From: Pseudomonas sp. DY-1
GTDB taxonomy: Bacteria > Pseudomonadota > Gammaproteobacteria > Pseudomonadales > Pseudomonadaceae
Length of the DNA stretch: 64,000 bases
NCBI RefSeq assembly: GCF_003626975.1
Contig: NZ_CP032616.1
Span: 4,564,001-4,628,000, forward strand
Reading direction: 5' to 3'
Shown: piece by piece, positions 1 to 12,702 of the stretch
Layout: each line of letters opens with the position of its first letter
How positions within the stretch are numbered: the stretch's first letter is position 1
The notes under the pieces: model-generated
The model's input: only the letters and a program-made list of their open reading frames with translations
Databases searched by the model: none
What the model was told of the DNA's origin: nothing
Translations under genes and position numbers: made by a program

Positions 1-2463
1 GGGCAGGACTACGATAGGCTTTTGTCGAGCGCCATGGTTGACCAGGAGTTCTATCGAACCCAGTGCGACCAGACCCAGTTCGAAAATTATGATGCGGTAC
101 TCCACTATCTCCGATTCGGTGCGCATCTGGGGCTGGACCCTAGCGAGAGTTTTTCCACCCGGAAGTACCTCTGGCGCTATCCGGATGTCGCACGAGCCGG
201 CGTGAACCCCCTGGTTCACTACATAAAGTATGGAGCGGGCCGCCAGGCTACTCCCGTCTTGTCCAGCTCCCGGGGTGATGGTCGATATCGAGTCTTCGTG
301 TCGTGCTGGCTGAAGAACAAGGAGTCGATACACGACGGGCTATTGGAGCTCTCCGAAAGGTTACTGGCCGATGGCGTGAGGACGACCTTCGTCACCAATG
401 CTGCGACCTTGCTTTCGGAGCCCGGGGTCGAGGCGCTCTCGACGGACTTCCTAATTTCCAACCTGTACCCCAAGTTGTCTTCCTGCAACGTCAGTTTCCC
501 CGATTGGTTGACAGAAATTGTGGAGATGACGAGGTGTTGGGAAGAGGTAATGATGACGTCGGGAGGCGCGGGAGGAGACGTCGGCATTGAAGCGCGAGTC
601 AGATCCGCTTACGCCTTCTGGAAAGTACTTTTTGAAGAGTTCAAGCCGCGGATGATGCTTATCTGGGGCAGTACTGCGCCGCTGAGCAAGCTCCACTACA
701 GGCTCTGCCAGGATCTTTCCGTTCCTTCGCTGATTATTGAGCGCGGGCATTTCCCTGGAACTATTTCGATTGACCTGCTTGCTCAGTTCGGGCGAGGCGG
801 AATCAATCTCAGGCCTCACTCCGCCCTGCTCGCCAATGTGAACTGTTCGGAGAGTGACATTCGTCACTATGCTGAGTGGGTGCGCAAGAATCAGGAGTCG
901 CCCTATTCGAGCAAGAACTCCAAGGAGAACGTAGAGGAACTACTGTCGACCTTCCGTGCCGAGCACCGGAAAATTGTCCTGTTCATTGGCGTCAACGACC
1001 TGGGATCGGGCACGGCTTATGCGGGACGGGTGGGAGTGGAGGAGCACTCGAGTTTGTTCAGTTCCTCCTTGCAGGCGTTCCACGCGGTCAGGGATGCGCT
1101 GCGCGCTATCGATCCAAAAGCGGTGCTCATGTTGAAGCCGCATCCGTCCGACAAGACGAACTATTCAGCTCTGCTTTCGGAAAGCGATGTCCTGGTGGAC
1201 TCCCATAACATCAACTCGCTGATCGTGGCGGCTGATGTTTGCGTTTCCCTGTCCACTACGGCACTGGCCCGGTGCATGCTCGAAGCCAAGGCGACATTGA
1301 ATGTCGGGATATCCGATATCAGCATGAAAGGTGCTGCCTATGAGTGCTCGAGTCTGACCGATATTCCTGTACAGCTCAGGGCTGCGTTGCATGGGGAAGG
1401 GCTCGAAGAGCGTAGCCGTAAGGGCTTTGCGTTTATTAAATATATATTTGAAGAGCAGTTGGTTGGTATCGATGAAACCACTCCTGCGAGACTCGACATA
1501 AGAGATCTGAGTGAATTCATCAGTGGCCGGATAGCATCGAACCTGGTCGTGGGTAAAGTTGATGAGCGACTTCAGGGGCGGAACTTGCTTCGCCGACTCT
1601 TCAATCCTGCCAATCCCATCTTCTACAAGGAAGACTACAGTACGGCCGGCGTGAAGCCCTCCCGTGGTGTGGATGTGGTCATTCCGGTGTACGGCGACGC
1701 CGCCATCACTAAGGCATGCATAGATAGCGTGCTCCTGGCTAGGGGGCAGGATGATTACCGGATCGTCGTGATCTTCGACGCCAGCCCCTATGACGACGTC
1801 AAGGCGCTGCTGGAGGGCTATCGTTCGACGGAAGGCGTAGTCGTGCTTTTCAATCCCGTCAATGTGGGATATCCCGCTACAGCCAACAGGGGGATGGCCT
1901 ACTCGCAGGATAGGGATGTCATTCTGCTCAATAGCGATACGCTCGTTACCCCAGGGTGGGTAAGCAGGCTGCAGCGCCATGCGTATTCGTCGGACGAGGT
2001 TGCCACCGTTACGCCGTTCTCGAACAATGCGTCCATTTTCAGCCTTGCAGACTTCCCGCGAGGCGCAGAGCTCCATGGCGGTCTCGAGGAAGTCGCGAGG
2101 GTGAATGAGGTACTGGCTTCTGCCGGCGGCGATACGATCGACGTGCCAGTGGGCCACGGCTTCTGCATGTACGTGAAGCGCACCGCGTTACGGGAACTGG
2201 GTTTCTTCGACGAAATTCTCTTTGGGCGGGGCTACAGCGAGGAAGTGGACTTTTGTCTGCGCGCCCGCAGTCTCGGCTTCAAGAACGTCTGCGCAACGGA
2301 TGTGTATGTCGGCCATGTAGGTGGGGTGAGTTTCGCAGACACCGCCAATGCGCGGAAAGTGGCAGCTCGCAAGATAATCTCGGATAAATTCCCGGACTAT
2401 TTCCCCGAGATCAAGAAATTTGTGAGTGCGGACCCGTTCGCCAGCTACAGAAAGCTAGTTTGA
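1..2463 (+). CDS. Multidomain glycosyltransferase: Kdo-transferase-like domain plus GT2 domain (5' end outside window)
   Basis: The frame is open to the first base, so the N-terminus is missing; the TTG at 22 is probably internal. Visible residues about 5-85 hold two degenerate copies of the short repeat common at the front of surface-glycan glycosyltransferases (one reads RYPDVARAGVNPLVHYIKYG). Residues about 97-510 resemble the capsule/Kdo-transferase (KpsS or GT99-like) fold, with KPHPSD near residue 379 and an SLSTTALA segment. From about 557 a GT2 domain follows (VVIPVYGD, LNSDT as DxD-type metal site, then FGRGYSEEVDFC). The middle domain is closely similar to the whole protein encoded at 5303-6676. 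Likely a cytoplasmic enzyme adding two kinds of sugar to an O-polysaccharide or capsule. The acceptor and the exact sugars are inference. Confidence 0.8.
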   Translation, partial: GQDYDRLLSSAMVDQEFYRTQCDQTQFENYDAVLHYLRFGAHLGLDPSESFSTRKYLWRYPDVARAGVNPLVHYIKYGAGRQATPVLSSSRGDGRYRVFVSCWLKNKESIHDGLLELSERLLADGVRTTFVTNAATLLSEPGVEALSTDFLISNLYPKLSSCNVSFPDWLTEIVEMTRCWEEVMMTSGGAGGDVGIEARVRSAYAFWKVLFEEFKPRMMLIWGSTAPLSKLHYRLCQDLSVPSLIIERGHFPGTISIDLLAQFGRGGINLRPHSALLANVNCSESDIRHYAEWVRKNQESPYSSKNSKENVEELLSTFRAEHRKIVLFIGVNDLGSGTAYAGRVGVEEHSSLFSSSLQAFHAVRDALRAIDPKAVLMLKPHPSDKTNYSALLSESDVLVDSHNINSLIVAADVCVSLSTTALARCMLEAKATLNVGISDISMKGAAYECSSLTDIPVQLRAALHGEGLEERSRKGFAFIKYIFEEQLVGIDETTPARLDIRDLSEFISGRIASNLVVGKVDERLQGRNLLRRLFNPANPIFYKEDYSTAGVKPSRGVDVVIPVYGDAAITKACIDSVLLARGQDDYRIVVIFDASPYDDVKALLEGYRSTEGVVVLFNPVNVGYPATANRGMAYSQDRDVILLNSDTLVTPGWVSRLQRHAYSSDEVATVTPFSNNASIFSLADFPRGAELHGGLEEVARVNEVLASAGGDTIDVPVGHGFCMYVKRTALRELGFFDEILFGRGYSEEVDFCLRARSLGFKNVCATDVYVGHVGGVSFADTANARKVAARKIISDKFPDYFPEIKKFVSADPFASYRKLV

Positions 2464-2534
2464 AAGAACTATTTTTGATGTTGAGTATTCTTGGTCGTGT
2501 TATTTGATCTCCGGCCACCAAAGGAGGAAACTTG

Positions 2535-4151
2535 GTGATTCCCGATCGTAAAAAGTTAACGGTGCTGGATTGCACACTCCGCGATGGCGGCTATTACAAC
2601 AACTGGGATTACCCGACCGGCCTGGTTCGTCGCTATCTGGAGGTCATGAAGCGAGCGGGAATCGACTACGTGGAGCTTGGTCTGAGGACCGAGTCTGCGG
2701 ATTCATTCGCCGGGCCGTACGCATTCACGGTCGATGAATGGATCAGGCACATTGGCGTTCCTGAAGGAGTGCGCGTCGGTGTGATGTGCAACGCCAAGGA
2801 CCTCTTGAAAGGTGGCCCGGGTGCAGTAGAGCGATTTTTTGCGAAAGCTGAAGACTCTCCTGTCGAGCTGGTGCGAATCGCTGCTCATTTTTCAGAGATA
2901 GATAATTGCGCTGAAATTGTTCTGGCTCTGCATTCGCTGGGGTATCGAGTCGGCTTCAACTTCATGCAGTCGAATGGTCGCTCTGCAGAGGAACTGAGCA
3001 GCAAGGCCAGGCTGCTCTCCGAGTGGCCCGTCGATGTGCTTTATTTCGCCGATTCCATGGGGAACATGTCGGCGAAGGACGTTGCATTCATAGTTGCCGC
3101 CCTGCGCGATGGGTGGGACAGGGAGCTTGGCTTCCACGCTCACGACAATATGGGGTGTGCGTTGAGCAACTGCATGGCCGCCATCGAGCTGGGGGTGACC
3201 TGGATCGATGCGACGGTGCTGGGGATGGGGCGTGGCGCGGGTAACGCCCGGATAGAGAATCTCTTGCTGGCCCTTGCCGAAAATGGAGGTCATGACGTCG
3301 ACCTCAGCAGCTTGCTCAACCTGGTAGTCGAGGAATTCCAGCCACTGCAGAAGAAGTACGGCTGGGGGCCCAACCTCTACTACCACCTGTCGGCAATGTA
3401 CGGGGTGCACCCGACCTATGTTCAGGAGATGCTGAGCGACGACAGATACAAGCCCTCGGCAATCATCACCGCATTGCGCCGGCTGGGCGAGTCGGGCGCT
3501 ACGGGCTTCTCCCAGGATAGATTGCTGGACGCTACGCAAGAGCAAAGGGATTCCGTGCTGGGTACCTGGAGCCCGAAAGGATGGCTTCAAGGGCGGGATG
3601 TCCTCATGATCGGCCCGGGCTCGGGGGTAAAACAGCACCTTGAGGGGCTGCTGCATTACATAAGCACCAAGAAGCCGTACGTCATCTGCATCAACAGCAA
3701 TGATTGGTTCCCTGTCGACAAGGTCGACGCGTGGGTCGCCTGTAACCGGCAGCGCCTGCTGCTGGACCGGGACTTTTACGCGAACAACCAGGGAACCCTG
3801 GTCGTGCCGGTCGGCTTGATCGACGAGGAAGAGCTTTCCGTGTGGAAACACTGGAATATCCTCGACTATGGCATGGTCGTTCAGAAGGGCCATTTCGAAG
3901 TAGGTGAATTGACTGCCGTTCTTCCTGCGGCCCTGTCGGCCATTTATGGTCTCGGGATATGCAGTGTGGCTGGTGCCAATAGAGTCTTGCTGGCCGGATT
4001 CGATGGCTACGAGTTGGGCGATCCCCGTCATAGCCAGATGGAAATGGCGTTGAAGTGCTACCGGGATTATCAGGACTCCATACCGCTGGTAGCTATTACG
4101 CCAACTTCTCTTTCGCTGCCAGAGACGTCTCCGTACGCGCCGCGGATCTAG
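2535..4151 (+). CDS. HMGL-family (DRE-TIM) pyruvate aldolase with C-terminal Rossmann-like domain
   Basis: Protein of 538 aa starting at GTG 2535, seven bases after a strong AAGGAGG; the TTG at 2532 sits too close to it. Residues 1-300 carry the DRE-TIM metallolyase signature: DCTLRDGG near residue 12 and the metal-binding FHAHDN near 200, as in 4-hydroxy-2-oxovalerate aldolases. From about residue 353 (VLMIGPGSG) a second nucleotide-binding-like domain follows, which I do not recognise firmly (DUF115-like at best). Family enzymes join or split pyruvate and an aldehyde. In a glycan locus that also has a CMP-Kdo-synthetase-like gene, the plausible role is building a 3-deoxy-2-ulosonic acid from pyruvate and a sugar aldehyde. 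The substrate is inference. The gene is 71 bases after the upstream glycosyltransferase and probably co-transcribed. Confidence 0.8.
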   Translation: MIPDRKKLTVLDCTLRDGGYYNNWDYPTGLVRRYLEVMKRAGIDYVELGLRTESADSFAGPYAFTVDEWIRHIGVPEGVRVGVMCNAKDLLKGGPGAVERFFAKAEDSPVELVRIAAHFSEIDNCAEIVLALHSLGYRVGFNFMQSNGRSAEELSSKARLLSEWPVDVLYFADSMGNMSAKDVAFIVAALRDGWDRELGFHAHDNMGCALSNCMAAIELGVTWIDATVLGMGRGAGNARIENLLLALAENGGHDVDLSSLLNLVVEEFQPLQKKYGWGPNLYYHLSAMYGVHPTYVQEMLSDDRYKPSAIITALRRLGESGATGFSQDRLLDATQEQRDSVLGTWSPKGWLQGRDVLMIGPGSGVKQHLEGLLHYISTKKPYVICINSNDWFPVDKVDAWVACNRQRLLLDRDFYANNQGTLVVPVGLIDEEELSVWKHWNILDYGMVVQKGHFEVGELTAVLPAALSAIYGLGICSVAGANRVLLAGFDGYELGDPRHSQMEMALKCYRDYQDSIPLVAITPTSLSLPETSPYAPRI

Positions 4152-4222
4152 TTAATACACTATGTGGTCGGCTCGGGGGCTACTGCCATCGGGCCTTTTT
4201 ATCTCAGAGCCTACTTGAAATA

Positions 4223-5239
4223 ATGATAACTTCGAACGGCAGCTCGCCAACCCACAGGAACTGCTTTGATCTAGTCCGGCATTTTGCGGCGTTCATGGTG
4301 TTGTTCAGCCATCATTTTGCATTATCGGGAATGACAGAGCCTTCTTTTTTGGGTATGCATTCGCTGGGTGGACTGGCAGTTGTAATTTTCTTTTCGATAT
4401 CTGGCTATCTGGTCACCAAGAGCTTCGTCCGCTCGGCCAACTTCTATGATTATCTGGAGAAGCGGGCGAGGAGGATATTTCCTGGCTTGATTGCCTGCTC
4501 TGCGGTAGTCGTATTCGTTGTCATACCTTTTTATGTGGAGCTGGGCTATTTCGACTATCTCAGCGAAGAAAGGACCTGGAAGACCTTCCTTTCGGCGTCC
4601 ATGCTGCTGGGCATAAGGTATGCGGGAATTTTTTCTGATTTTATCTATAGCGGTACGATAAATGGCAGTCTCTGGACTTTGCCAATCGAGTTTCTGTGCT
4701 ACCTGATTGTTGGTGTCGTACTGGTTTTCTCCAGAACTGTAAAGGCACCTCTCGCTCTTCTTGTGGTCAGCTTCGTAGGTATGCTGGTTGTTCGGGAAAA
4801 CTCCATAAATTATACGTTCTATGCGATTTCCCTCGAGCGACTCATGATGTTCCTCATGGTCTTTTCGCTGGGTGGTGTGCTTGCGCTCACCGAGTCTATT
4901 TGGATGGCAAAGACCAGTAGGATATATCTGATAGTCGCCTCTATGGCTGTTCTCTTTGTTTTCAAGGGCCGGCCGGAAATGATGGTGCTTGGCAATATGG
5001 CGATCTGCGTCATTGTGATCGCATTTTGTACCTCCTTCTCTGAAAGCCTGATTGCCGGACGGTTCGATGTTTCGTACGGGGTTTATATTTACGCCTTCCC
5101 TGTGCAGCAACTGGTTATCAATAATTTCAGTTACGGACTTTATTCCGAAATGGCGCTTTCGGCGTTATTCACTCTTGTCCTCGCGATTGCGTCCTGGTTG
5201 CTCGTCGAGAAGCCTATGCTCAAGCGGGGCAAGGGCTGA
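4223..5239 (+). CDS. Membrane O-acyltransferase (acyltransferase 3 / OafA family)
   Basis: Protein of 338 aa. I choose the ATG at 4223 because the next residues (CFDLVRHFAAFMVLFSHH) are the usual N-terminal start of the family; the open frame extends back to 4055 without family-like sequence. About ten hydrophobic segments are visible. The conserved FFSISGYLV stretch and the Arg-rich RARRIFPGL follow within the first 100 residues, as in bacterial acyltransferase-3 proteins that O-acetylate surface glycans at the inner membrane. The gene is visibly more AT-rich than the chromosome backbone to its right, which fits horizontal transfer. It likely decorates the polysaccharide built by the flanking transferases; position and acyl group are not known. 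Confidence 0.85.
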   Translation: MITSNGSSPTHRNCFDLVRHFAAFMVLFSHHFALSGMTEPSFLGMHSLGGLAVVIFFSISGYLVTKSFVRSANFYDYLEKRARRIFPGLIACSAVVVFVVIPFYVELGYFDYLSEERTWKTFLSASMLLGIRYAGIFSDFIYSGTINGSLWTLPIEFLCYLIVGVVLVFSRTVKAPLALLVVSFVGMLVVRENSINYTFYAISLERLMMFLMVFSLGGVLALTESIWMAKTSRIYLIVASMAVLFVFKGRPEMMVLGNMAICVIVIAFCTSFSESLIAGRFDVSYGVYIYAFPVQQLVINNFSYGLYSEMALSALFTLVLAIASWLLVEKPMLKRGKG

Positions 5240-5302
5240 AGTGCAGGCAAATACTCAACGTGATCCTCAAGGCGCCATATTCGTGTTACAGATTCGAGCT
5301 GC

Positions 5303-6676
5303 ATGACTAGCGTTTTAATGAGGGTCCTGCGCAAGGCTTCCTCTTTGATGAGGAGCCTGTCCGGCCGGTTGCGCAGGAGCTTCTTTCAGCGCTGGCGAGC
5401 GCGTCAGTGGAAGGACAAGCATTCACGTGTCTTCATATCCTGCTGGTTGAAATCGACTGAGTCTGTCCATGGTGCGCTTGTTCAACTGGAGCGGAGTCTC
5501 GCGAATAAAGGAATTCGGCTGACCTTTGTTACAGATGCCCCCGTTCTTGTGAGTTCCTTGCGCCTGGATATCATTCGCTCAGGGTTCTTCGTCAGCTCTC
5601 CACGGCGCTATGACTCACCTGTCCCGGACAATGTGGCTCAATGGCTTTCAGGGATACTGAGCTACGAACGGTTCTGGCTCATGTCTTCCGGCAGGCCGTT
5701 GCCTGATCTGCAGCGGCATAGCGAGGCGATCAGCGATGGTTATCACTATTGGCTTGAAGTGCTGAGGGAAAACCGTCCGGCGCTAATGTTGGTTTGGGGA
5801 AGCACCGCGCCACTGAGCCAGTTGCATTTGAAACTGTGTGGCGAGTTATCCATCCCGGTGCTCGTACTCGAAAGGGGGCACTTCTCCGGAACCCTGATGC
5901 TGGATACGGTTGGCCAGTTTGCTTTCGGCGGCTTTGGGCTACAGCCTCAACGGGTATTGTTCGGTAAGTCGCAAGGGCAAGGCGGAGCATATCGCCACTA
6001 TTTGGAGTGGGTTAAGTCAAACACAGCGCTACCTTACGCATCGTATAACGTTGCTGCGCTGTCAGAATTCCGCGAAATGCTGGAAAGTACGAAGAAAAAA
6101 GTGATTCTCTTTATCGGGGTCAATGATCTTGGGACTGGCAGTCTTCTCTCCTCTTTTGGAAGTTGGCAAGAAAGTGACAATCCTTTCTCATCGACACGTG
6201 CGGGATTGAAGTCAGTCATAGATGCGATGAACGTGGTCGCCCCCAATGACATTCTGCTTTTCAAGCCTCATCCATCCGATCGTGGAAATTACGCTGACCT
6301 TGTCACAGGGAACGTCCATCTTGCCAAAGATGTAAACATCAATTTCCTGATAGAGAATGCGGACGTTTGCGTTTCTCTTTCGACTACCGCCTTGGCCAGG
6401 GTATTGGCCAGCGACAAGCCGCTGGTCACGCTGGGCTTCACCGAATTGAGCCAGAGAGGTGTTGCCTATGAGTGTCAAACGATGCAGGAAGTGCCCGCCA
6501 TGCTGCGGGCTGCGCTTTGTCGTGACAATTTCCCGGAGCGCGTTACCAACGGGCATGCGTACATTGGCTCTCTATTCGAGAATTACCTCATTGCAATCGA
6601 CCAGGATGTTCCTTGCCGGATTGATATGGAGGATCTGTGCGAGTTCATCGTCGAAAGGGTGAGACACTGTGGGTAA
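5303..6676 (+). CDS. Kdo-transferase-like (KpsS/GT99-like) glycosyltransferase
   Basis: Protein of 457 aa starting at ATG 5303. From about residue 45 to the end it parallels the middle domain of the protein encoded at 1-2463: RVFISCWLK, LVWGSTAPLSQLH, ERGHFSGT, LFIGVNDLGTG, KPHPSD and SLSTTALAR all recur in the same order. The KPHPSD and Ser/Thr-rich motifs are typical of the capsule polysaccharide Kdo-transferase superfamily, so a CMP-linked ulosonic acid is the likely donor (inference). No GT2 domain and no N-terminal repeats are present, so this is the single-domain paralogue. It lies in the same plus-strand run as the aldolase and acyltransferase. Confidence 0.75.
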   Translation: MTSVLMRVLRKASSLMRSLSGRLRRSFFQRWRARQWKDKHSRVFISCWLKSTESVHGALVQLERSLANKGIRLTFVTDAPVLVSSLRLDIIRSGFFVSSPRRYDSPVPDNVAQWLSGILSYERFWLMSSGRPLPDLQRHSEAISDGYHYWLEVLRENRPALMLVWGSTAPLSQLHLKLCGELSIPVLVLERGHFSGTLMLDTVGQFAFGGFGLQPQRVLFGKSQGQGGAYRHYLEWVKSNTALPYASYNVAALSEFREMLESTKKKVILFIGVNDLGTGSLLSSFGSWQESDNPFSSTRAGLKSVIDAMNVVAPNDILLFKPHPSDRGNYADLVTGNVHLAKDVNINFLIENADVCVSLSTTALARVLASDKPLVTLGFTELSQRGVAYECQTMQEVPAMLRAALCRDNFPERVTNGHAYIGSLFENYLIAIDQDVPCRIDMEDLCEFIVERVRHCG

Positions 6677-6745
6677 AGTAATCCAAGGCATCGTCCCTGT
6701 GGGTTGCTGCCATGTCTCATGCATGGACAAACCTGAGGGGCAGGT

Positions 6746-7333
6746 ATGATTCAGAAAGGTATCGTGTGGCATCAGGGTAATGTGACCCGCCAAGAGCGAG
6801 AAGGATTACTGCAGCAGGCCGGCGTCACGATCTGGTTGACCGGCTTGAGCGCATCCGGCAAGTCGACACTGGCATTCGCTCTGGAGCGTCGATTGCTTTC
6901 GGCCGGAAGGGCCTGCTTCACCCTGGACGGGGATAATGTCCGCCACGGCCTGAACAGGAATTTGGGGTTCTCCATTCAGGACCGCTCGGAAAATATCAGA
7001 AGGGTGGCTGAAGTTGCCCGGTTGATGAACGAGGCGGGACTGATAGTGGTCGTTGCGTTGATCTCGCCATTGCGTGCCGATCGGCTCATGGCAAAAGAGG
7101 TCATTGGTGCGGAGTGCTTCAAGGAAGTGTATGTCAGCACTCCACTCGAGGCCTGCGAGGCCAGGGATCCGAAAGGGCTCTATGGAAAAGCAAGGGCGGG
7201 AGAGCTCGCCGAGTTCACCGGGATATCTTCGCCCTACGAGTCTCCTCCTATGCCCGATCTGATCATCAATACACTTGAAGCGCATATTGATGATGCAGTC
7301 GAGCAGCTTTACGGACTTATCAAGAGTTCCTGA
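6746..7333 (+). CDS. cysC: APS-kinase-like protein (CysC family)
   Basis: Protein of 195 aa, ATG 6746 preceded by GAGGGG. P-loop GLSASGKST lies near residues 32-40; DGDNVRHGLNRNLGFS and the STPLEACEARDPKGLY segment are characteristic of adenylylsulfate kinase, which phosphorylates APS to PAPS. It ends ten bases before a convergent gene. Free-standing CysC in a polysaccharide locus can supply PAPS for glycan sulfation. In Campylobacter capsule loci a CysC homologue instead acts on a cytidine-diphosphoramidate for O-methyl phosphoramidate synthesis. I see no sulfotransferase and no phosphoramidate partner genes in the window, so its product here is open. Confidence 0.85.
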   Translation: MIQKGIVWHQGNVTRQEREGLLQQAGVTIWLTGLSASGKSTLAFALERRLLSAGRACFTLDGDNVRHGLNRNLGFSIQDRSENIRRVAEVARLMNEAGLIVVVALISPLRADRLMAKEVIGAECFKEVYVSTPLEACEARDPKGLYGKARAGELAEFTGISSPYESPPMPDLIINTLEAHIDDAVEQLYGLIKSS

Positions 7334-7343
7334 TTCGAGGTTT

Positions 7344-8021
7344 CTATGCCTGGCCGGCAATTTGCGTGTTGAGAAGCGACTCGATACTGTCCTGAATGAC
7401 AATTTTTTTGTCGCTGAAATATGCCGACCACTCTTTGAATTCGCTCCACGCGCTCAGGAACACGAAGTCCAGCCCAGCCGCCGCGGCGCACTGATGATCG
7501 AAGCGGCTGTCGCCAATGAACAACGCTGGCTTCTGAATGTTTTGCCGCTCGATTTCTCTTTCCAGTATGACGTCCTTTGGCGTTGGGCTGCCAAAGATGC
7601 CGCCGTCGAAGTATTCCGTCAGACCGCGGGCCATGAATACGTCCCCCAGCTCTGCCTGATCGCCGCCCGAAACAATCAGCCAGCGGCTGTCGGCAGTGAT
7701 CTCGCGCAGCTTTTCGAGGCCGGGCGCGATGGCGCAGGTCAGGAGTCCATCGCGGACAAAGTTTGCGTAGTTTTCAAGGACTACCTCGAGTTCGCTGTCC
7801 CACGATGTCCTGTTCAGGATGTCGCGGAAGAAATGCTCGAATTTTTTATAGCGAGAAATACCACCATTTGCGACGTGGAATTCCACAAGCTTGGTGGCTG
7901 GGTCCTTTCCATAGTCCAGCGCCGCTCGGTAGAAGGCATCGGTTTTTATCCGATTGGAGTCCAATATAACCCCGTCGCAGTCGAAGACCAGGCACTCGTA
8001 CTTGCTCAGAGTGGCATTCAT
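7344..8021 (-). CDS. HAD-family phosphatase, probably sugar-phosphate specific
   Basis: Protein of 225 aa. The start is ATG 8021, whose ATGA overlaps the stop of the upstream cytidylyltransferase gene; the longer open frame to 8234 reads through that gene and is not real. HAD motifs: DCDGVILDS near residue 12 (nucleophile and acid/base Asp), VSGG (motif II), a Lys in TPKDVI (motif III) and GDSRFDH (motif IV). The long helical insert after motif I is a C1 cap, so this is not a KdsC-type phosphatase. Translational coupling to the CMP-Kdo-synthetase-like gene suggests it dephosphorylates a precursor of the same sugar, by analogy with KdsC before KdsB. Substrate unknown. Confidence 0.8.
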   Translation of the reverse strand: MNATLSKYECLVFDCDGVILDSNRIKTDAFYRAALDYGKDPATKLVEFHVANGGISRYKKFEHFFRDILNRTSWDSELEVVLENYANFVRDGLLTCAIAPGLEKLREITADSRWLIVSGGDQAELGDVFMARGLTEYFDGGIFGSPTPKDVILEREIERQNIQKPALFIGDSRFDHQCAAAAGLDFVFLSAWSEFKEWSAYFSDKKIVIQDSIESLLNTQIAGQA

Positions 8022-8764
8022 GGGAGCTTGCCTTCCTGAATTGCAGCTTCGGCGCGCAACACGTCCTCGGGATTGTCCACGGCGATTGAACTGGTGGACA
8101 GTTCGATCATCCTTACTTCCCAGCCAAGTTCCAGGAAGCGAAGGATTTCGATGTCCTCTATGCTTTCCAGTGGAGTCTTTTTCGTTTGCGAGCTGAAAGC
8201 CTCGAGTGCTTTGCGGGGGAAGGCATAAACGCAAACCTGGCGATGGCCAGTAATGAACCTGTCGTCTTTCGTTCCGGGAATTGTCGCGCGGGACATATAG
8301 AGCAGTCGCCCATCAGGACGCATTACAACTTTCGGTGTACTGGTACTGCGGAAGTGCTCTTCCTCCAGTATGGGGCAGAAGCCGTTGAGGACATCACCCG
8401 GGAAATCACTGATCTTTTCGATAATCGATCTGAGGTCCTGCGGATTGAACAGGGGTTCGTCCCCCTGGACATTGATGAACACTTCAGAGTCAATCAATCT
8501 TGCGCATTCGGCGACCCGGTCCGTGCCGGTGAGGCAATCTTTCGAGGTCATCAGGACCTGGATGCCATGTGCTTCGCAGACGGTCTTGATTCTATCGTCG
8601 TCAGTTGCGACGAAGATCTTTTCCGGAGGGCAGGCCTTTGCACATTGATCATAGGTTCTTATGATCATCGGAATGCCGCATATCTCTACGAGTGGCTTTC
8701 CGGGAAGTCGGCTGGACTCATATCGTGCCGGAATGATAACGCTGAAATTGTGCTCTTTCTTCAA
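8018..8764 (-). CDS. CMP-Kdo synthetase-like cytidylyltransferase
   Basis: Protein of 248 aa, the normal length for KdsB. The start is TTG 8764 with GGAGAG nine bases upstream on the minus strand. Motifs: IPARYESSRLPGKPL (nucleotide-binding start), VATDDDRI, GTDRVAE, NVQGDEPL and SRATIPG, all in KdsB order. The reaction would be CTP plus a 3-deoxy-ulosonic acid giving the CMP-sugar and pyrophosphate in the cytosol. The housekeeping kdsB is expected elsewhere in the chromosome, so this copy is probably dedicated to the surface glycan here. It is first in a two-gene minus-strand operon with the HAD phosphatase, convergent with cysC. Confidence 0.85.
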   Translation of the reverse strand: MKKEHNFSVIIPARYESSRLPGKPLVEICGIPMIIRTYDQCAKACPPEKIFVATDDDRIKTVCEAHGIQVLMTSKDCLTGTDRVAECARLIDSEVFINVQGDEPLFNPQDLRSIIEKISDFPGDVLNGFCPILEEEHFRSTSTPKVVMRPDGRLLYMSRATIPGTKDDRFITGHRQVCVYAFPRKALEAFSSQTKKTPLESIEDIEILRFLELGWEVRMIELSTSSIAVDNPEDVLRAEAAIQEGKLP

Positions 8765-9363
8765 GTTGAAGCTCTCCGTCGCAGCAAGCGGAGCATGTTA
8801 CACCTCCCCCAGTCCGCGTGGCTACCGCACCCGAGGGGCGGCGCAATGCCCAGTGTATGTTCTGGTCCACCGTTAAAACAGGGGAGATGTCCTGCCGATC
8901 CTTTCGTCGGATGGCGAGTTATTTTGGACTGGCGACTTGCTTAGTGCGGGCGCTTTTCGATGTTCCTGTATGTATCTTGTCTACCGCTGCTCATTGATGA
9001 TGCTTGGTTTATTCGGATAGTGCGATTGTGCTTTAATGGGCGGCCATATTTGAGGCGCATGGCTGCTCGCACTACTACAGCGAGGGGCTTGTTAGCGCCA
9101 TCAAATGTCGTCGGTATGGACGGGGCCCCGCGGCATCAAAAGGTTCTCTGGGAGTATTCCGTGCACGAAAGTTGAGTGCGGTGTCCTTTTGTTCTTTAAG
9201 GGGGAGATCCCCAGCATCCGGAGTCGCGAGCGGGGCTTTCGAGTCCGCTGGCAGTGTTCGGGCTTATATTTGACGAGTGGGGACTTCCCATTTGCGCGTG
9301 TTTTTTTCAGATTTCTTGGCAGGACGATCTGCCTGCTATTGGTCCAACTATCAGAGGAAGGGT
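8765..9363. other. Intergenic gap between glycan locus and lipoprotein gene
   Basis: About 600 bases with only short open frames that lack a ribosome binding site and family features. It must hold the promoter of the minus-strand cytidylyltransferase operon and that of the plus-strand lipoprotein gene. Oligo-T runs and AT-rich patches near 9300 are compatible with a promoter for the latter, but I cannot assign hexamers. Nothing else is recognised. Confidence 0.5.
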
Positions 9364-9870
9364 ATGAAAAAAGAACTAATGGCGGTGCTTGTTGCAAGCG
9401 CCATGTTGAGTTTGCAAGGGTGTGGCGATGAGTCCAAGTCGGACAAGGTCGGCACTGCCGCGCCTTCTCTGACCGAAGCCGCCGTGGTATCCGCGGTGGG
9501 AGCCCCTGTGGTGAAGCGTATCGTCAAGCAGGGAGAGGCTTGCGCCATCAGTCGCTACAAGTTTTCTCGTGACACCGTTGGCATGACGCTGGAGTTCAGC
9601 TGCGGTCGCACCAATATTTCCTGGCACAAGGCTGAAGGGGAGTCTGCTAGCCAGGCCCAAGCCGGTCAGGAGCTCGCGCGGCGCGCGCTGGCGGGCATGT
9701 CGGGTGCCGATGGCGCCGAAGTGGACGCGGCTCTGAAGGGAGAGGTTTTCCGCCTCAAGAGTCTTGGTCGTGGCTTGAAACTGAGTGGCTCCTGCAAGTC
9801 CAATAATTGCCTCATTACCATCTCGGGAGAGGTTGCACGAGATTCTGAGGTTGCAAAGAGCAGCAGCTAA
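9364..9870 (+). CDS. Small predicted lipoprotein, function unknown
   Basis: Protein of 168 aa. I choose ATG 9364 (after AGAGGAAGGGT) because it gives a clean lipoprotein signal: MKKE, a hydrophobic stretch, then LQGC with the lipidated Cys near residue 19. An Asp two residues after the Cys (CGD) may favour inner-membrane retention by the Lol rule known from enterobacteria. The mature part has four further Cys (for example in GEACAIS and SCKSNNC) that could form disulfides. I do not recognise the family. It stands alone between the glycan locus and the integrase remnant. Confidence 0.65.
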   Translation: MKKELMAVLVASAMLSLQGCGDESKSDKVGTAAPSLTEAAVVSAVGAPVVKRIVKQGEACAISRYKFSRDTVGMTLEFSCGRTNISWHKAEGESASQAQAGQELARRALAGMSGADGAEVDAALKGEVFRLKSLGRGLKLSGSCKSNNCLITISGEVARDSEVAKSSS

Positions 9871-10342: not shown

Positions 10343-10418
<76 letters not shown>

Positions 10419-10713: not shown

Positions 10714-11928
10714 TCAGCGTTCGGCCAGAATCAGGATGTTCCGTGGGGTGAGCTGAGTAGGGCAGAAGCTGCCGAGCCTCACCTGGTAGCCCTGCTCCTC
10801 GAGATACAAGGCTCGGTCCAGTAGCAGCCAGAGTTCCAGGGGCCGACGGAACAGGCTGCGGGGGAGTTCCAGGTTGCGCACCACGGCTAATCGTTGCCAG
10901 CCGGCGATTTCCAGTGCCTTCCAGTCGCATTCTGCTGGCTGAGGGAGTGCCTTTAGCTCGCAGAGGTCCACGCAGTACGCGGAGAATGGCTTGTCCAGCC
11001 AGTTGGTGGCGAGAGAGGGAACGGTTAGGTAGCTGTCTTCGCCAGTCAATTTCCGTTGCAGCAGGTCGAACGCCAGCCTTCGTGCCATGGAGTTGTCGCG
11101 CTGGCGGCGGTCGCGAGCGCCGGCGGTGACGGTTTCGCTCATCGGCAGGCGCAGGTCGGCTCGGCTGAGATGCAGTGTGGACGCCTTGGCTGCTGCGGAA
11201 AGCGGCTCATAGCTCGGCGTCCGGATGCGGTTGTAGCAGCAGGGGGCGACGGCCAGTTGGCGGCAACCGGCCTCGCTGGCCAGTTGCAGCAGGCGCACAT
11301 GCAGATCGCCACAGGCGTGCAGCGCAACCGCGGTGTGCTCGGCCGCAACGTGGCGTATGGCGTTGTCGGCCAGGGCATCTTGCTCGCGGTGCTGGGCGGC
11401 GAGACCAAGACGCTGGCTGAGTTGCTGGCCACCAGCTACCAGCCGCGGGTCGAGTTCGATGCAGGTCAGTGGTGTGCCGTCATGGGCCAGGCGCCGCCCC
11501 AGGTGCCCCTTGCCGGCGCACCAGTCCAGCCAATGCTCTGAGGACTGGCGAAAACCCAGTCGGCTGGCGAAGGCATTGATCTGCTGCCATTTGCGTCCGG
11601 GCACGTCCACCGTGAAGGCATTGGGTAGCGTTTCTGTCCATACCGCGGGCAGTTCGCCAATGCGGCAAAGTTCGGCGGAGCGAGCTGCAAGCTGTGGATA
11701 AGGGGCCGGCGCCTGCAATTCTTCAGGGCGATTGTGGATGGCGTCGGCATCGGCCAGGGAGCGTTCGCGGAGCCATACGGCCAGCTCAGGATGCTCGCTC
11801 TCCCAAGGCAGCGTCAGTTCGGTGAAGGGGGCCGGTCGCCAGATCGACTGATGCGCGCAGAGGAATTCATCGAGGGCGGTGAAGCGTTCCCGCAGGTGCG
11901 GGCCTTGGAGGGGCGCGGGGCTGGTCAT
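10714..11928 (-). CDS. SAM-dependent methyltransferase (Methyltransf_32-like), function unknown
   Basis: Protein of 404 aa. I use ATG 11928 (MTSPAPLQG); the in-frame ATG at 11988 would place the start inside a hairpin. The central part holds LDWCAGKGHLGRRLA near residue 150, a SAM-binding glycine loop, followed by CIELDP (acidic residue for SAM ribose) and ALHACGD, then VAPCCYN. That order is typical of the PF13679-type methyltransferases related to the GSTCD C-terminus and RNA methyltransferases. The substrate is not known. It is alone on the minus strand, downstream of the ABC operon but behind its own TATAAT. Confidence 0.7.
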   Translation of the reverse strand: MTSPAPLQGPHLRERFTALDEFLCAHQSIWRPAPFTELTLPWESEHPELAVWLRERSLADADAIHNRPEELQAPAPYPQLAARSAELCRIGELPAVWTETLPNAFTVDVPGRKWQQINAFASRLGFRQSSEHWLDWCAGKGHLGRRLAHDGTPLTCIELDPRLVAGGQQLSQRLGLAAQHREQDALADNAIRHVAAEHTAVALHACGDLHVRLLQLASEAGCRQLAVAPCCYNRIRTPSYEPLSAAAKASTLHLSRADLRLPMSETVTAGARDRRQRDNSMARRLAFDLLQRKLTGEDSYLTVPSLATNWLDKPFSAYCVDLCELKALPQPAECDWKALEIAGWQRLAVVRNLELPRSLFRRPLELWLLLDRALYLEEQGYQVRLGSFCPTQLTPRNILILAER

Positions 11929-11959
11929 GCTGGCGAAGCGATTGGCGTCAGGGGCGGCG

Positions 11960-12005
11960 ATTATAGCGCCGCCAAGGCCGCTCCTCATCCGGGGACGAGG
12001 AGCGG
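11960..12005 (-). promoter_or_regulatory. TATAAT element and hairpin between ABC operon and methyltransferase gene
   Basis: On the minus strand a 9-bp stem (11978-11986 with 11997-12005) follows the last permease gene. It lacks a T-run, so it may only weakly end transcription. A perfect TATAAT at 11960-11965, 32 bases before the methyltransferase ATG, is the likely -10 of that gene; no good -35 is seen. Confidence 0.4.
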
Positions 12006-12012
12006 TCGAGGC

Positions 12013-12702
12013 TCAGCGGCCCTGGAGGGCATCCACCCGCAGTTTGTGCTCGAGCAGGCGGAAGGCCCGAACCAACACGTAGGCGATCAGCAGGTAGAAG
12101 AGGCCGGCGGCAAAGAATATCTCCACCGGCAGGTAGGTGCGGGCGATGATCGTCCGCGCCATGCCGGTGAGTTCCAGCAAGGTGACGGTACTGGCCAGGG
12201 CGCTGGCCTTGATCATCAGGATCACTTCGTTGCTGTAGGCGGGCAGGCCGATGCGCGCGGCGCGCGGCAGGATGATGTAGACCAGTGCCTGGAAGCGTGA
12301 CATGCCGAGCGCCCGTGCTGCCTCGATCTCGCCTGGCGGAACGGCCTGGATGGCACCACGCAGGATTTCGGCGATGTAGGCCGCCGTGTGCATGGTCATG
12401 GTGATCACGGCGCACCAGAACGGGTCGCGCAGGTAGGGCCAGAGCGGGCCTTTGCGCACCGATTCAAACTGCGCCAGGCCGTAGTAGACCAGGAAGAGTT
12501 GCACCAGCAGCGGCGTGCCACGGAAGAAGAAAATGTAGCCGTAGGGCAGGGCGCGAACGTACCAGTGGCGCGATGCGCGGGCGATGCCCATTGGCAGCGC
12601 GAGGATCAGGCCGGCGACCACCGCAATGGTCACCAGCTCCAGGGTCAGGACTGCGCCTTGGGCCAGTTGCGGCAGGTATTTGAGGATGACTTCCCAGTTC
12701 AT
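12013..12702 (-). CDS. Polar amino-acid ABC transporter permease (HisM/GlnP type)
   Basis: Protein of 229 aa with about five membrane spans and the inner-membrane permease loop ARALGMSRFQALVYIILPRA (EAA motif) near residues 130-150. The early RGTPLLVQLF stretch is characteristic of HisM/HisQ/GlnP permeases. Its start ATG overlaps the stop of the preceding permease gene by ATGA, so the two subunits are translationally coupled and likely form a heterodimeric channel. It is the last gene of the four-gene minus-strand operon. Confidence 0.9.
   Translation of the reverse strand: MNWEVILKYLPQLAQGAVLTLELVTIAVVAGLILALPMGIARASRHWYVRALPYGYIFFFRGTPLLVQLFLVYYGLAQFESVRKGPLWPYLRDPFWCAVITMTMHTAAYIAEILRGAIQAVPPGEIEAARALGMSRFQALVYIILPRAARIGLPAYSNEVILMIKASALASTVTLLELTGMARTIIARTYLPVEIFFAAGLFYLLIAYVLVRAFRLLEHKLRVDALQGR

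What the first reader, a model, noticed from the sequence alone, without database searches (positions are those of the whole stretch)
2535..8764. Possible pathway for an unusual ulosonic acid: pyruvate aldolase, HAD phosphatase, CMP-synthetase and two Kdo-transferase-like enzymes
One compact locus encodes a DRE-TIM pyruvate aldolase (DCTLRDGG, FHAHDN), a HAD phosphatase translationally coupled to a KdsB-like cytidylyltransferase, and two Kdo-transferase-like glycosyltransferases. The known routes to Kdo and sialic acids use PEP-dependent synthases (KdsA, NeuB), and none is seen here. A pyruvate aldolase making a 3-deoxy-2-ulosonate, then dephosphorylation, CMP-activation and transfer, would be a different logic. 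The fused second domain of the aldolase has no clear role and could hold the sugar-phosphate partner. All links are inferred from context.
Basis: partly seen in the sequence, partly recalled or inferred. Interest (0 to 1): 0.75.

Follow-up and report, generated by a model that had tools for sequence, protein, structure and literature searches.

The report
Aldolase-made CMP-activated acidic sugar cassette
A small, repeatedly reused set of three bacterial genes looks like an unrecognised way to make an acidic surface sugar from pyruvate and prepare it for attachment to the cell coat, bypassing the enzymes used for the known sugars of this class.

Summary
At 2535-8764 lie a two-domain DRE-TIM aldolase, an acyltransferase, a KpsC/KpsS-like glycosyltransferase, an APS kinase and, on the other strand, a HAD phosphatase overlapping a KdsB-like cytidylyltransferase (CTase), within an ABC-transporter-type O-antigen locus. 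The CTase is not the sole kdsB; the genome also has KdsA, but no NeuB hit. In 298 Pseudomonadaceae genomes the aldolase-type CTase occurs in 19, all aldolase carriers; the other two carriers have a PseF-like CTase in that slot. These CTases form their own clade. One Bacillota genome has the trio without a KdsA over cut-off and with only a weak NeuB hit. The aldolase's second domain folds like Maf/GT42 CMP-sugar transferases. Best explanation: pyruvate plus an aldehyde (probably phosphorylated) gives a 3-deoxy-2-ulosonate; the HAD dephosphorylates it, the CTase activates it, KxHP-type transferases attach it. Product and reactions are untested. The GTs keep KPHP but lack QXXXD, so 'Kdo-transferase' is unproven.

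The parts
1..2463 (+). C-terminal part of a 1229-aa multi-domain glycosyltransferase (starts upstream, outside the window): module related to the short GT, with KPHP, then a GT2 domain
2535..4151 (+). two-domain pyruvate-type aldolase (GTG start, strong Shine-Dalgarno)
2556..3317 (+). DRE-TIM (HMGL-like) aldolase domain, residues 9-262 (numbered from the TTG at 2532); R17, D18, H202, H204 and R234 in 73 of 73 aligned sequences, Y21 in 72 of 73
3549..4148 (+). second domain, residues 340-539: MptE/Maf/GT42-like fold
4223..5239 (+). membrane acyltransferase (Acyl_transf_3); longest ORF from 4055
5348..6676 (+). single-module KpsC/KpsS-like glycosyltransferase (ORF from 5303); KPHP present, QXXXD absent
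6746..7333 (+). adenylyl-sulfate kinase (CysC); may serve the sulfotransferase-like protein upstream of the window rather than the ulosonate cassette (inferred)
7344..8021 (-). HAD phosphatase; start overlaps the stop of the CTase gene (ATGA)
8018..8764 (-). KdsB-like CMP-sugar cytidylyltransferase of the aldolase-linked clade

Best explanation
The aldolase, CTase and HAD genes form a laterally spread three-gene cassette that makes a CMP-activated 3-deoxy-2-ulosonic acid by a PEP-independent route. The metal-dependent aldolase adds the enolate of pyruvate to an aldehyde, most likely a sugar phosphate of central metabolism because no fourth gene is shared (inferred); the HAD phosphatase removes the phosphate (inferred); the KdsB-like or, in other loci, PseF-like CTase makes the CMP-ulosonate (enzyme class shown by family; that its substrate is not Kdo is inferred); glycosyltransferases with the KxHP CMP-binding motif place it in or on the exported O-polysaccharide (inferred). 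The second domain of the aldolase has the Maf/GT42 fold of CMP-sialate-type transferases (shown by prediction) and probably binds the CMP-ulosonate end product, either as a feedback sensor or as a transferase (inferred).
For: Neighbourhood: 54 of 61 loci have a CTase within 3 kb (53 on the same strand), 44 a HAD, 41 both; CTase density 0.156 per kb within 3 kb against 0.024 per kb in the rest of the same loci. 20 of 20 further Pseudomonadaceae loci have both; one of the 20 (L156) repeats L027, so 19 are new. Phylogenetic profile: linked CTase type in 19 of 298 genomes, all 19 among the 21 aldolase carriers; the other two have a PseF-like CTase there. Two CTase types share one slot. Gene counts: of 12 loci that also hold a NeuB-cluster gene, 10 have two or more CTases; of 67 without one, 47 have one, 7 two and 13 none (2 of the 12 NeuB genes were named by NCBIfam). 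Rossellomorea aquimaris has the trio, no KdsA over cut-off (127.5 of 314 bits), a 32-bit NeuB hit at that same place, and besides the linked CTase only a 471-aa PF02348 frame of GlmU size. Bacillus sp. ISL-41 has KdsA and another CTase a few kb from the trio. CTase clade and residues. Second-domain fold. Aldolase: closest solved relatives 3dxi and DmpG, metal site invariant.
Against: No reaction, product or glycan structure is known. Seven of 61 loci lack a CTase within 3 kb (one has it at 3.4 kb), and 17 of 61 lack a HAD within 3 kb. Of 11 loci with Pelagibacter-type titles, 8 have a CTase within 3 kb but only 1 a HAD by my profiles, so the phosphatase step is not universal. In the window the CTase-HAD pair is on the opposite strand. 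The His that solved HOA aldolases have at position 21 is Tyr here, so the chemistry may differ. Seven of 79 loci add an HpaI-type aldolase, for which this scheme has no place. QXXXD of known retaining Kdo transferases is missing in both window GTs. The Rossellomorea NeuB hit (32.1 bits) formally passes Pfam's cut-off of 22.1; I read it as a DAHP-synthase relative (inferred). Nearly all checked carriers have KdsA somewhere (27 of 28), so Kdo as the CTase substrate is not excluded.
Confidence: 0.72

Rival explanations
1. PEP-independent Kdo: the aldolase joins pyruvate and arabinose 5-phosphate to Kdo 8-phosphate, and the trio is a second supply of ordinary CMP-Kdo for Kdo-transferase-like GTs.
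For: Among solved structures the CTase is nearest to the CMP-Kdo synthetase of the 1gq9 set (146 bits; recalled to be KpsU) and passes PRK13368; the short GT matches Capsule_synth weakly; extra Kdo in surface polymers is common (PMC12887879, passages).
Against: 27 of the 28 carrier genomes checked already have KdsA and the window's genome has KdsA and another KdsB; 53 linked CTases form a separate clade (100/98), and differ from the other KdsB-type proteins, e.g. Q176 in 54 of 57 against H in 26 of 27; PseF-like CTases replace them in some loci.
Confidence: 0.13
2. The CTase and HAD make a CMP-sugar from an ulosonate supplied by other genes, and the aldolase makes something else (for example a hydroxy-oxo acid side group or a catabolic step).
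For: KdsA exists in 27 of 28 carriers checked; NeuB in 14 of 29 genomes at over 100 bits.
Against: The profile in 298 genomes, no NeuB hit in the window's genome, and Rossellomorea, where no PEP synthase for an ulosonate is evident.
Confidence: 0.08
3. The protein works in the cleaving direction or as a retro-aldol/aldol enzyme that remodels a ready-made ulosonate before activation; loci with an added HpaI-type aldolase would fit.
For: Pyruvate aldolases are reversible (general knowledge); an HpaI-like aldolase lies near the two-domain aldolase in 7 of 79 loci.
Against: No other ulosonate source is evident in Rossellomorea; 72 of 79 loci have no HpaI-type hit.
Confidence: 0.05

Closest known systems
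4-hydroxy-2-oxovalerate (HOA) aldolases (DmpG, BphI)
   Different: below the family cut-offs (128.8 against 286 and 138.8 against 229 bits); Tyr for His21, Arg for Ala at 234; a Maf-like second domain, where DmpG pairs with a dehydrogenase
KdsA-KdsC-KdsB route to CMP-Kdo and NeuB-NeuA routes to CMP-nonulosonates (established knowledge)
   Same: C-C bond formation, dephosphorylation (Kdo and some others), CMP activation, transfer
   Different: pyruvate-type aldolase in place of the PEP synthase; a different HAD type from KdsC (recalled); a dedicated CTase clade
KpsU / KdsB CMP-Kdo synthetases
   Same: family and CTP-binding motifs; 146 bits to 1gq9
   Different: 12 columns differ between 57 linked and 27 other KdsB-type proteins at the thresholds used
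Maf flagellin glycosyltransferase, MptE-like kinase, GT42 sialyltransferases
   Different: fused to an aldolase; activity unknown; the window's own domain has no Pfam match
GT99 WbbB, GT107 KpsC, GT140 KrkA retaining Kdo transferases
   Same: KPHP motif in both window GT modules; weak Capsule_synth match of the short GT
   Different: no QXXXD in either; only a chance-level hit of the short GT among solved structures
3dxi, N-terminal domain of BVU_2661 (Bacteroides vulgatus)
   Different: titled 'putative aldolase', no assigned function; second domain not in the structure

Membership tests
4-hydroxy-2-oxovalerate aldolase (TIGR03217 / NF006049) | score over the curated cut-off | tested here: not met
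   128.8 of 286 and 138.8 of 229 bits
4-hydroxy-2-oxovalerate aldolase (TIGR03217 / NF006049) | His at DmpG position 21 | tested here: not met
   His in 1nvm, 8ih7, 4lrs; Tyr in the window and in 72 of 73 aligned sequences, window included
DRE-TIM metal-dependent pyruvate aldolase superfamily | barrel fold with R-D and H-x-H metal site | tested here: met
DRE-TIM metal-dependent pyruvate aldolase superfamily | pyruvate as nucleophile | not testable with these tools
   needs an assay
CMP-Kdo synthetase KdsB (TIGR00466) | score over the curated cut-off | tested here: not met
   154.0 of 155.2 bits, a near miss; the broader PRK13368 subfamily is met
CMP-Kdo synthetase KdsB (TIGR00466) | groups with the other (presumed housekeeping) KdsB proteins of the same genomes | tested here: not met
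   separate clade of 53 linked CTases, 100/98; Q for H at 176
CMP-Kdo synthetase KdsB (TIGR00466) | uses Kdo | not testable with these tools
   needs an assay
GT99/GT107/GT140 retaining Kdo transferases | (K/R)XHP CMP-binding motif | tested here: met
   KPHP at residue 321 of the short GT and 788 of the giant GT (motif from PMC12887879 passages, where GT140 itself has Ser for K/R)
GT99/GT107/GT140 retaining Kdo transferases | QXXXD nucleophile motif | tested here: not met
   no QXXXD in either protein
GT42 / Maf / MptE-like fold (second domain) | fold | tested here: met
GT42 / Maf / MptE-like fold (second domain) | transferase activity | not testable with these tools
   needs an assay
HAD phosphatase (PF00702) | family match and catalytic motifs | tested here: met
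   40.9 bits, cut-off 26.4; DCDGV and GDSRFD in the window protein; motif I pattern in 39 of 39 and motif IV pattern in 29 of 39 members of the HAD cluster
PEP-dependent ulosonate synthases KdsA/NeuB | such a gene beside the trio | tested here: not met
   window's genome: KdsA at C2:5540226, far away, no NeuB hit. Elsewhere NeuB-cluster genes share 12 of 79 loci; of the 28 genomes checked KdsA falls inside the fetched locus only in L059 (coordinates)

The most novel reading that the evidence does not exclude
A PEP-independent class of CMP-ulosonic acid biosynthesis exists in bacteria, including a Gram-positive with no evident Kdo or sialic acid synthase: a pyruvate aldolase fused to a CMP-sialyltransferase-fold domain builds the ulosonate, a HAD and one of two interchangeable CTase types finish it, and an unknown ulosonic acid (not Kdo, not a nonulosonic acid) is displayed in surface glycans of several phyla.
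Probability: 0.55. Interest if true: 0.85.

Novelty: new variant of a known kind. Interest (0 to 1): 0.76.

Why it matters
The established routes to CMP-activated ulosonic acids begin with a PEP-dependent synthase. A laterally spread aldolase-based route would mean that a class of acidic surface sugars has been missed, since curated models name the nearest relatives of its CTase 'KdsB' and of its aldolase '4-hydroxy-2-oxovalerate aldolase'. It gives a three-gene unit small enough for one-pot reconstitution, and a possible new aldolase for making 3-deoxy-ulosonates. It also puts a CMP-sialyltransferase-type domain onto a biosynthetic enzyme.

Tried and rejected
Rejected: 'sole kdsB of the genome' (one search shows another), and 'ordinary redundant KpsU' as the leading reading. 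The idea that the Gram-positive carriers lack Kdo altogether was dropped: Bacillus sp. ISL-41 has KdsA. GT99 membership was dropped on QXXXD. Its only hit among solved structures was at chance level. A by-eye match of aldehyde-pocket residues (BphI Leu87/Leu89, PMC3962088) was not used because HMMER's register there disagrees. Prevalence at phylum level is low: 2 of 398 genomes, the window's included (only up to three candidates per genome were scored there, four, nine, so absences are at that depth). Foldseek's list for the second domain is led by SteA (E 5.7e-5, TM 0.41), with CstII at E 0.16; the Maf match comes from the second look. Of the 102 proteins found with the second domain alone most lie on short contigs or carry the aldolase domain, but nine without it lie on contigs over 10 kb; whether free-standing copies exist was not followed up.

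Literature: ten searches. Judged from titles, starts of abstracts and the passages below, no listed paper links this aldolase to CMP-sugar genes. The library holds open papers only; one search matched 6,769 papers and listed 12. Papers seen as found passages only: PMC9736851, PMC3149649, PMC13171606, PMC12887879, PMC3962088, PMC12409901, PMC7371886; other listed papers were seen as listings. Recalled, from no call: roles of CstII and KdsB residues, KdsC being a different HAD type, 1gq9 being KpsU, 3-deoxy-L-glycero-pentulosonic acid in Klebsiella K38 as a possible product class (one search listed no capsule paper for it).
Full report
WHAT IS THERE. The window is G000:C2:4564001-4628000 of a 5.9-Mb genome; the closest aldolase, 97% identical, is named Metapseudomonas lalkuanensis. 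Bases 1-8764 have 54.1% G+C against 63.5% for 10700-64000. Just upstream, outside the window, are genes that read like the dTDP-rhamnose set, a Wzm/Wzt-type ABC transporter, a sulfotransferase-like protein with a long helical-looking tail, and the start of the giant GT (names from reading the translations, except Sulfotransfer_3 at 22.5 bits, below its cut-off of 27). So this reads as an ABC-exported O-polysaccharide locus. The window part holds, in order, the end of the giant GT, the two-domain aldolase, an acyltransferase, a second GT, CysC, and, on the other strand, HAD and CTase.

THE OBSERVATION. Aldolase start GTG 2535 after AAAGGAGG; HAD ATG at 8021 overlaps the CTase stop. The CTase is not the only KdsB-type gene: another is at C2:1878448, KdsA at C2:5540226, and NeuB (PF03102) has no hit.

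NEIGHBOURHOODS. Homologues of the aldolase were aligned and 80 loci fetched from public genomes by aldolase similarity alone. 79 have an aldolase ORF as best hit; 61 of these have full length (490 codons or more) and 3 kb on both sides (18 dropped). Of the 61, 54 have a CMP-sugar CTase within 3 kb, 53 on the same strand; 44 have a HAD; 41 both (profiles built from the loci's own clusters). Misses for the CTase: L011 (at 3.4 kb), L037, L040, L067 (SAR11), L052, L085, and L063 (Streptomyces, where only residues 5-334 match). Of 11 loci with Pelagibacter-type titles, 8 have a CTase within 3 kb and only 1 a HAD. CTase genes are 0.156 per kb inside 3 kb (57 in 366 kb) and 0.024 per kb outside (19 in 798 kb). 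The loci include gamma- and alphaproteobacteria, Bacillota, Bacteroidota and Omnitrophota (titles). Next to the aldolase (2.5 kb) the KdsB-like, PseF-like and HAD clusters occur in 37, 24 and 38 loci; the next clusters, apart from the aldolase itself, in nine, so no dedicated aldehyde-making gene is shared. As a further set, 21 of 298 Pseudomonadaceae genomes have the aldolase; the 20 loci besides the window, three of the same genus and 17 others, all have CTase and HAD beside it. One (L156) repeats L027. In two (L144, L149) the CTase is of the PseF-like type. The window and its near relatives L123 and L125 share the inverted CTase-HAD pair.

PROFILE. A profile of 18 linked CTases finds 21 of the 298 genomes at E 1e-60: 19 at 375-399 bits, all among the 21 aldolase carriers, and two at 219-221 bits in genomes where one search found no aldolase. 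The two carriers not found (G075, G315) are those with the PseF-like CTase. The genomes are related, so this is not a p-value, but the aldolase carriers are scattered over eight genera.

TWO CTASE TYPES AND A COUNT. The slot beside the aldolase holds a KdsB-like or a PseF-like PF02348 protein (the one PseF-like protein scanned against NCBIfam, L013, has TIGR03584 as best hit at 68.8 bits, below its cut-off). Twelve of 79 loci also hold a gene of the NeuB cluster (two of the twelve named by NCBIfam; two are fragments); ten of these have two or more CTases by my profiles, against 7 of 67 loci without it (47 have one, 13 none). The aldolase thus behaves, in gene counts, like one more ulosonate-forming enzyme with its own CTase.

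A NATURAL TEST. The genomes of 28 of the 80 loci were checked for KdsA: 27 have it over the cut-off. The exception, Rossellomorea aquimaris, has a 127.5-bit hit (cut-off 314) in a 365-aa frame; at the same place lies its only NeuB hit, 32.1 bits, which formally passes Pfam's 22.1. I read that gene as a DAHP synthase (inferred). Its only PF02348 proteins are the aldolase-linked one and a 471-aa frame of GlmU size. There the aldolase is the only evident source for the CTase. Completeness of that assembly was not measured. In Bacillus sp. ISL-41 KdsA and another CTase lie a few kb from the trio, so the trio is not simply a stand-in for KdsA there.

THE CTASE. 57 linked CTases and 27 other PF02348 proteins from carrier genomes and the window's own (presumed housekeeping KdsB for the most part) differ at 12 columns, e.g. 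Q176 in 54 of 57 against H in 26 of 27, and C178 in 52 of 57 against G in 27 of 27. In the tree 53 linked rows form one clade (100/98) and 26 of the 27 others lie apart; L053, L064, L087 and L084 lie outside that clade, and L084 pairs with the second CTase of Bacillus ISL-41. That these columns touch Kdo is recalled, not tested.

THE TRANSFERASES. Known retaining Kdo transferases share QXXXD and (K/R)XHP (PMC12887879 passages). Both window modules have KPHP and neither has QXXXD. ORFs of 280 aa or more with a [KR][PLAT]HP string occur in 37 of 79 loci, some plainly by chance, but several flank the cassette directly (L019, L026, L030, L044, L070, L083). Four of these six have no Pfam match up to E 0.1; L026 has only matches below cut-off, L044 has GT2 and Capsule_synth. 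They are candidates, not shown transferases.

MECHANISM. Shown: conserved trio, dedicated CTase clade, CMP-transferase-type fold of domain 2 (prediction). Inferred: pyruvate as donor, phosphorylated aldehyde, order aldolase-HAD-CTase, transfer into the O-polysaccharide. Not known: the sugar. Candidates run from C5 to C8 3-deoxy-2-ulosonates. The main rival, a second route to Kdo itself, is less likely but not excluded.

NOVELTY. Ten searches of the open library listed no paper that I could see to tie this aldolase to CMP-sugar genes (details in Tried and rejected). The kind of pathway is known; the carbon-carbon bond step and the fusion would be new.

Noticed in passing
L005:11520-13769 (just upstream of the window): A sulfotransferase-like protein (PF13469 22.5 bits, below cut-off) with a long coiled-coil-looking tail sits between Wzt and the giant GT, and CysC lies in the same locus: possibly a sulfate-capping chain-length ruler, by analogy with WbdD (recalled). 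Relatives occur beside the cassette in L044 and L034, L123 and L125.
   Followed up: partly
L011:11623-15791, L015:11624-14964, L023:11394-14998: A second aldolase-type group after the two-domain aldolase, in varying order: LdpA-like Fe-S protein, HAD, HpaI/GarL-like aldolase and a divergent KdsB-like CTase; may be another PEP-independent CMP-ulosonate cassette.
   Followed up: partly
L014:11648-12385, L024:11615-12364, L077:11549-12259, L085:11743-12495: An HpcH/HpaI-type aldolase follows the two-domain aldolase; in L014, L024 and L077 it comes before the PseF-like CTase, so two pyruvate-type aldolases share one gene run.
   Followed up: no
L037, L040, L067 (SAR11) and L010, L020, L083, L064: A B12-binding radical SAM protein (annotated in L037, L010, L083; the rest by cluster) lies next to the aldolase; in the three SAR11 loci no CTase lies within 3 kb and no HAD was found.
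   Followed up: no
L059:5102-5842 and 11586-12341: A Bacillus locus holds a KdsB-like gene next to KdsA as well as the aldolase trio: Kdo-type genes in a Gram-positive surface locus.
   Followed up: partly
window 9277-9870 and 10343-10418: Between the CTase and a tRNA-Thr (minus strand) an ORF at 9277-9870 reads like a lipoprotein with no family over cut-off.
   Followed up: no
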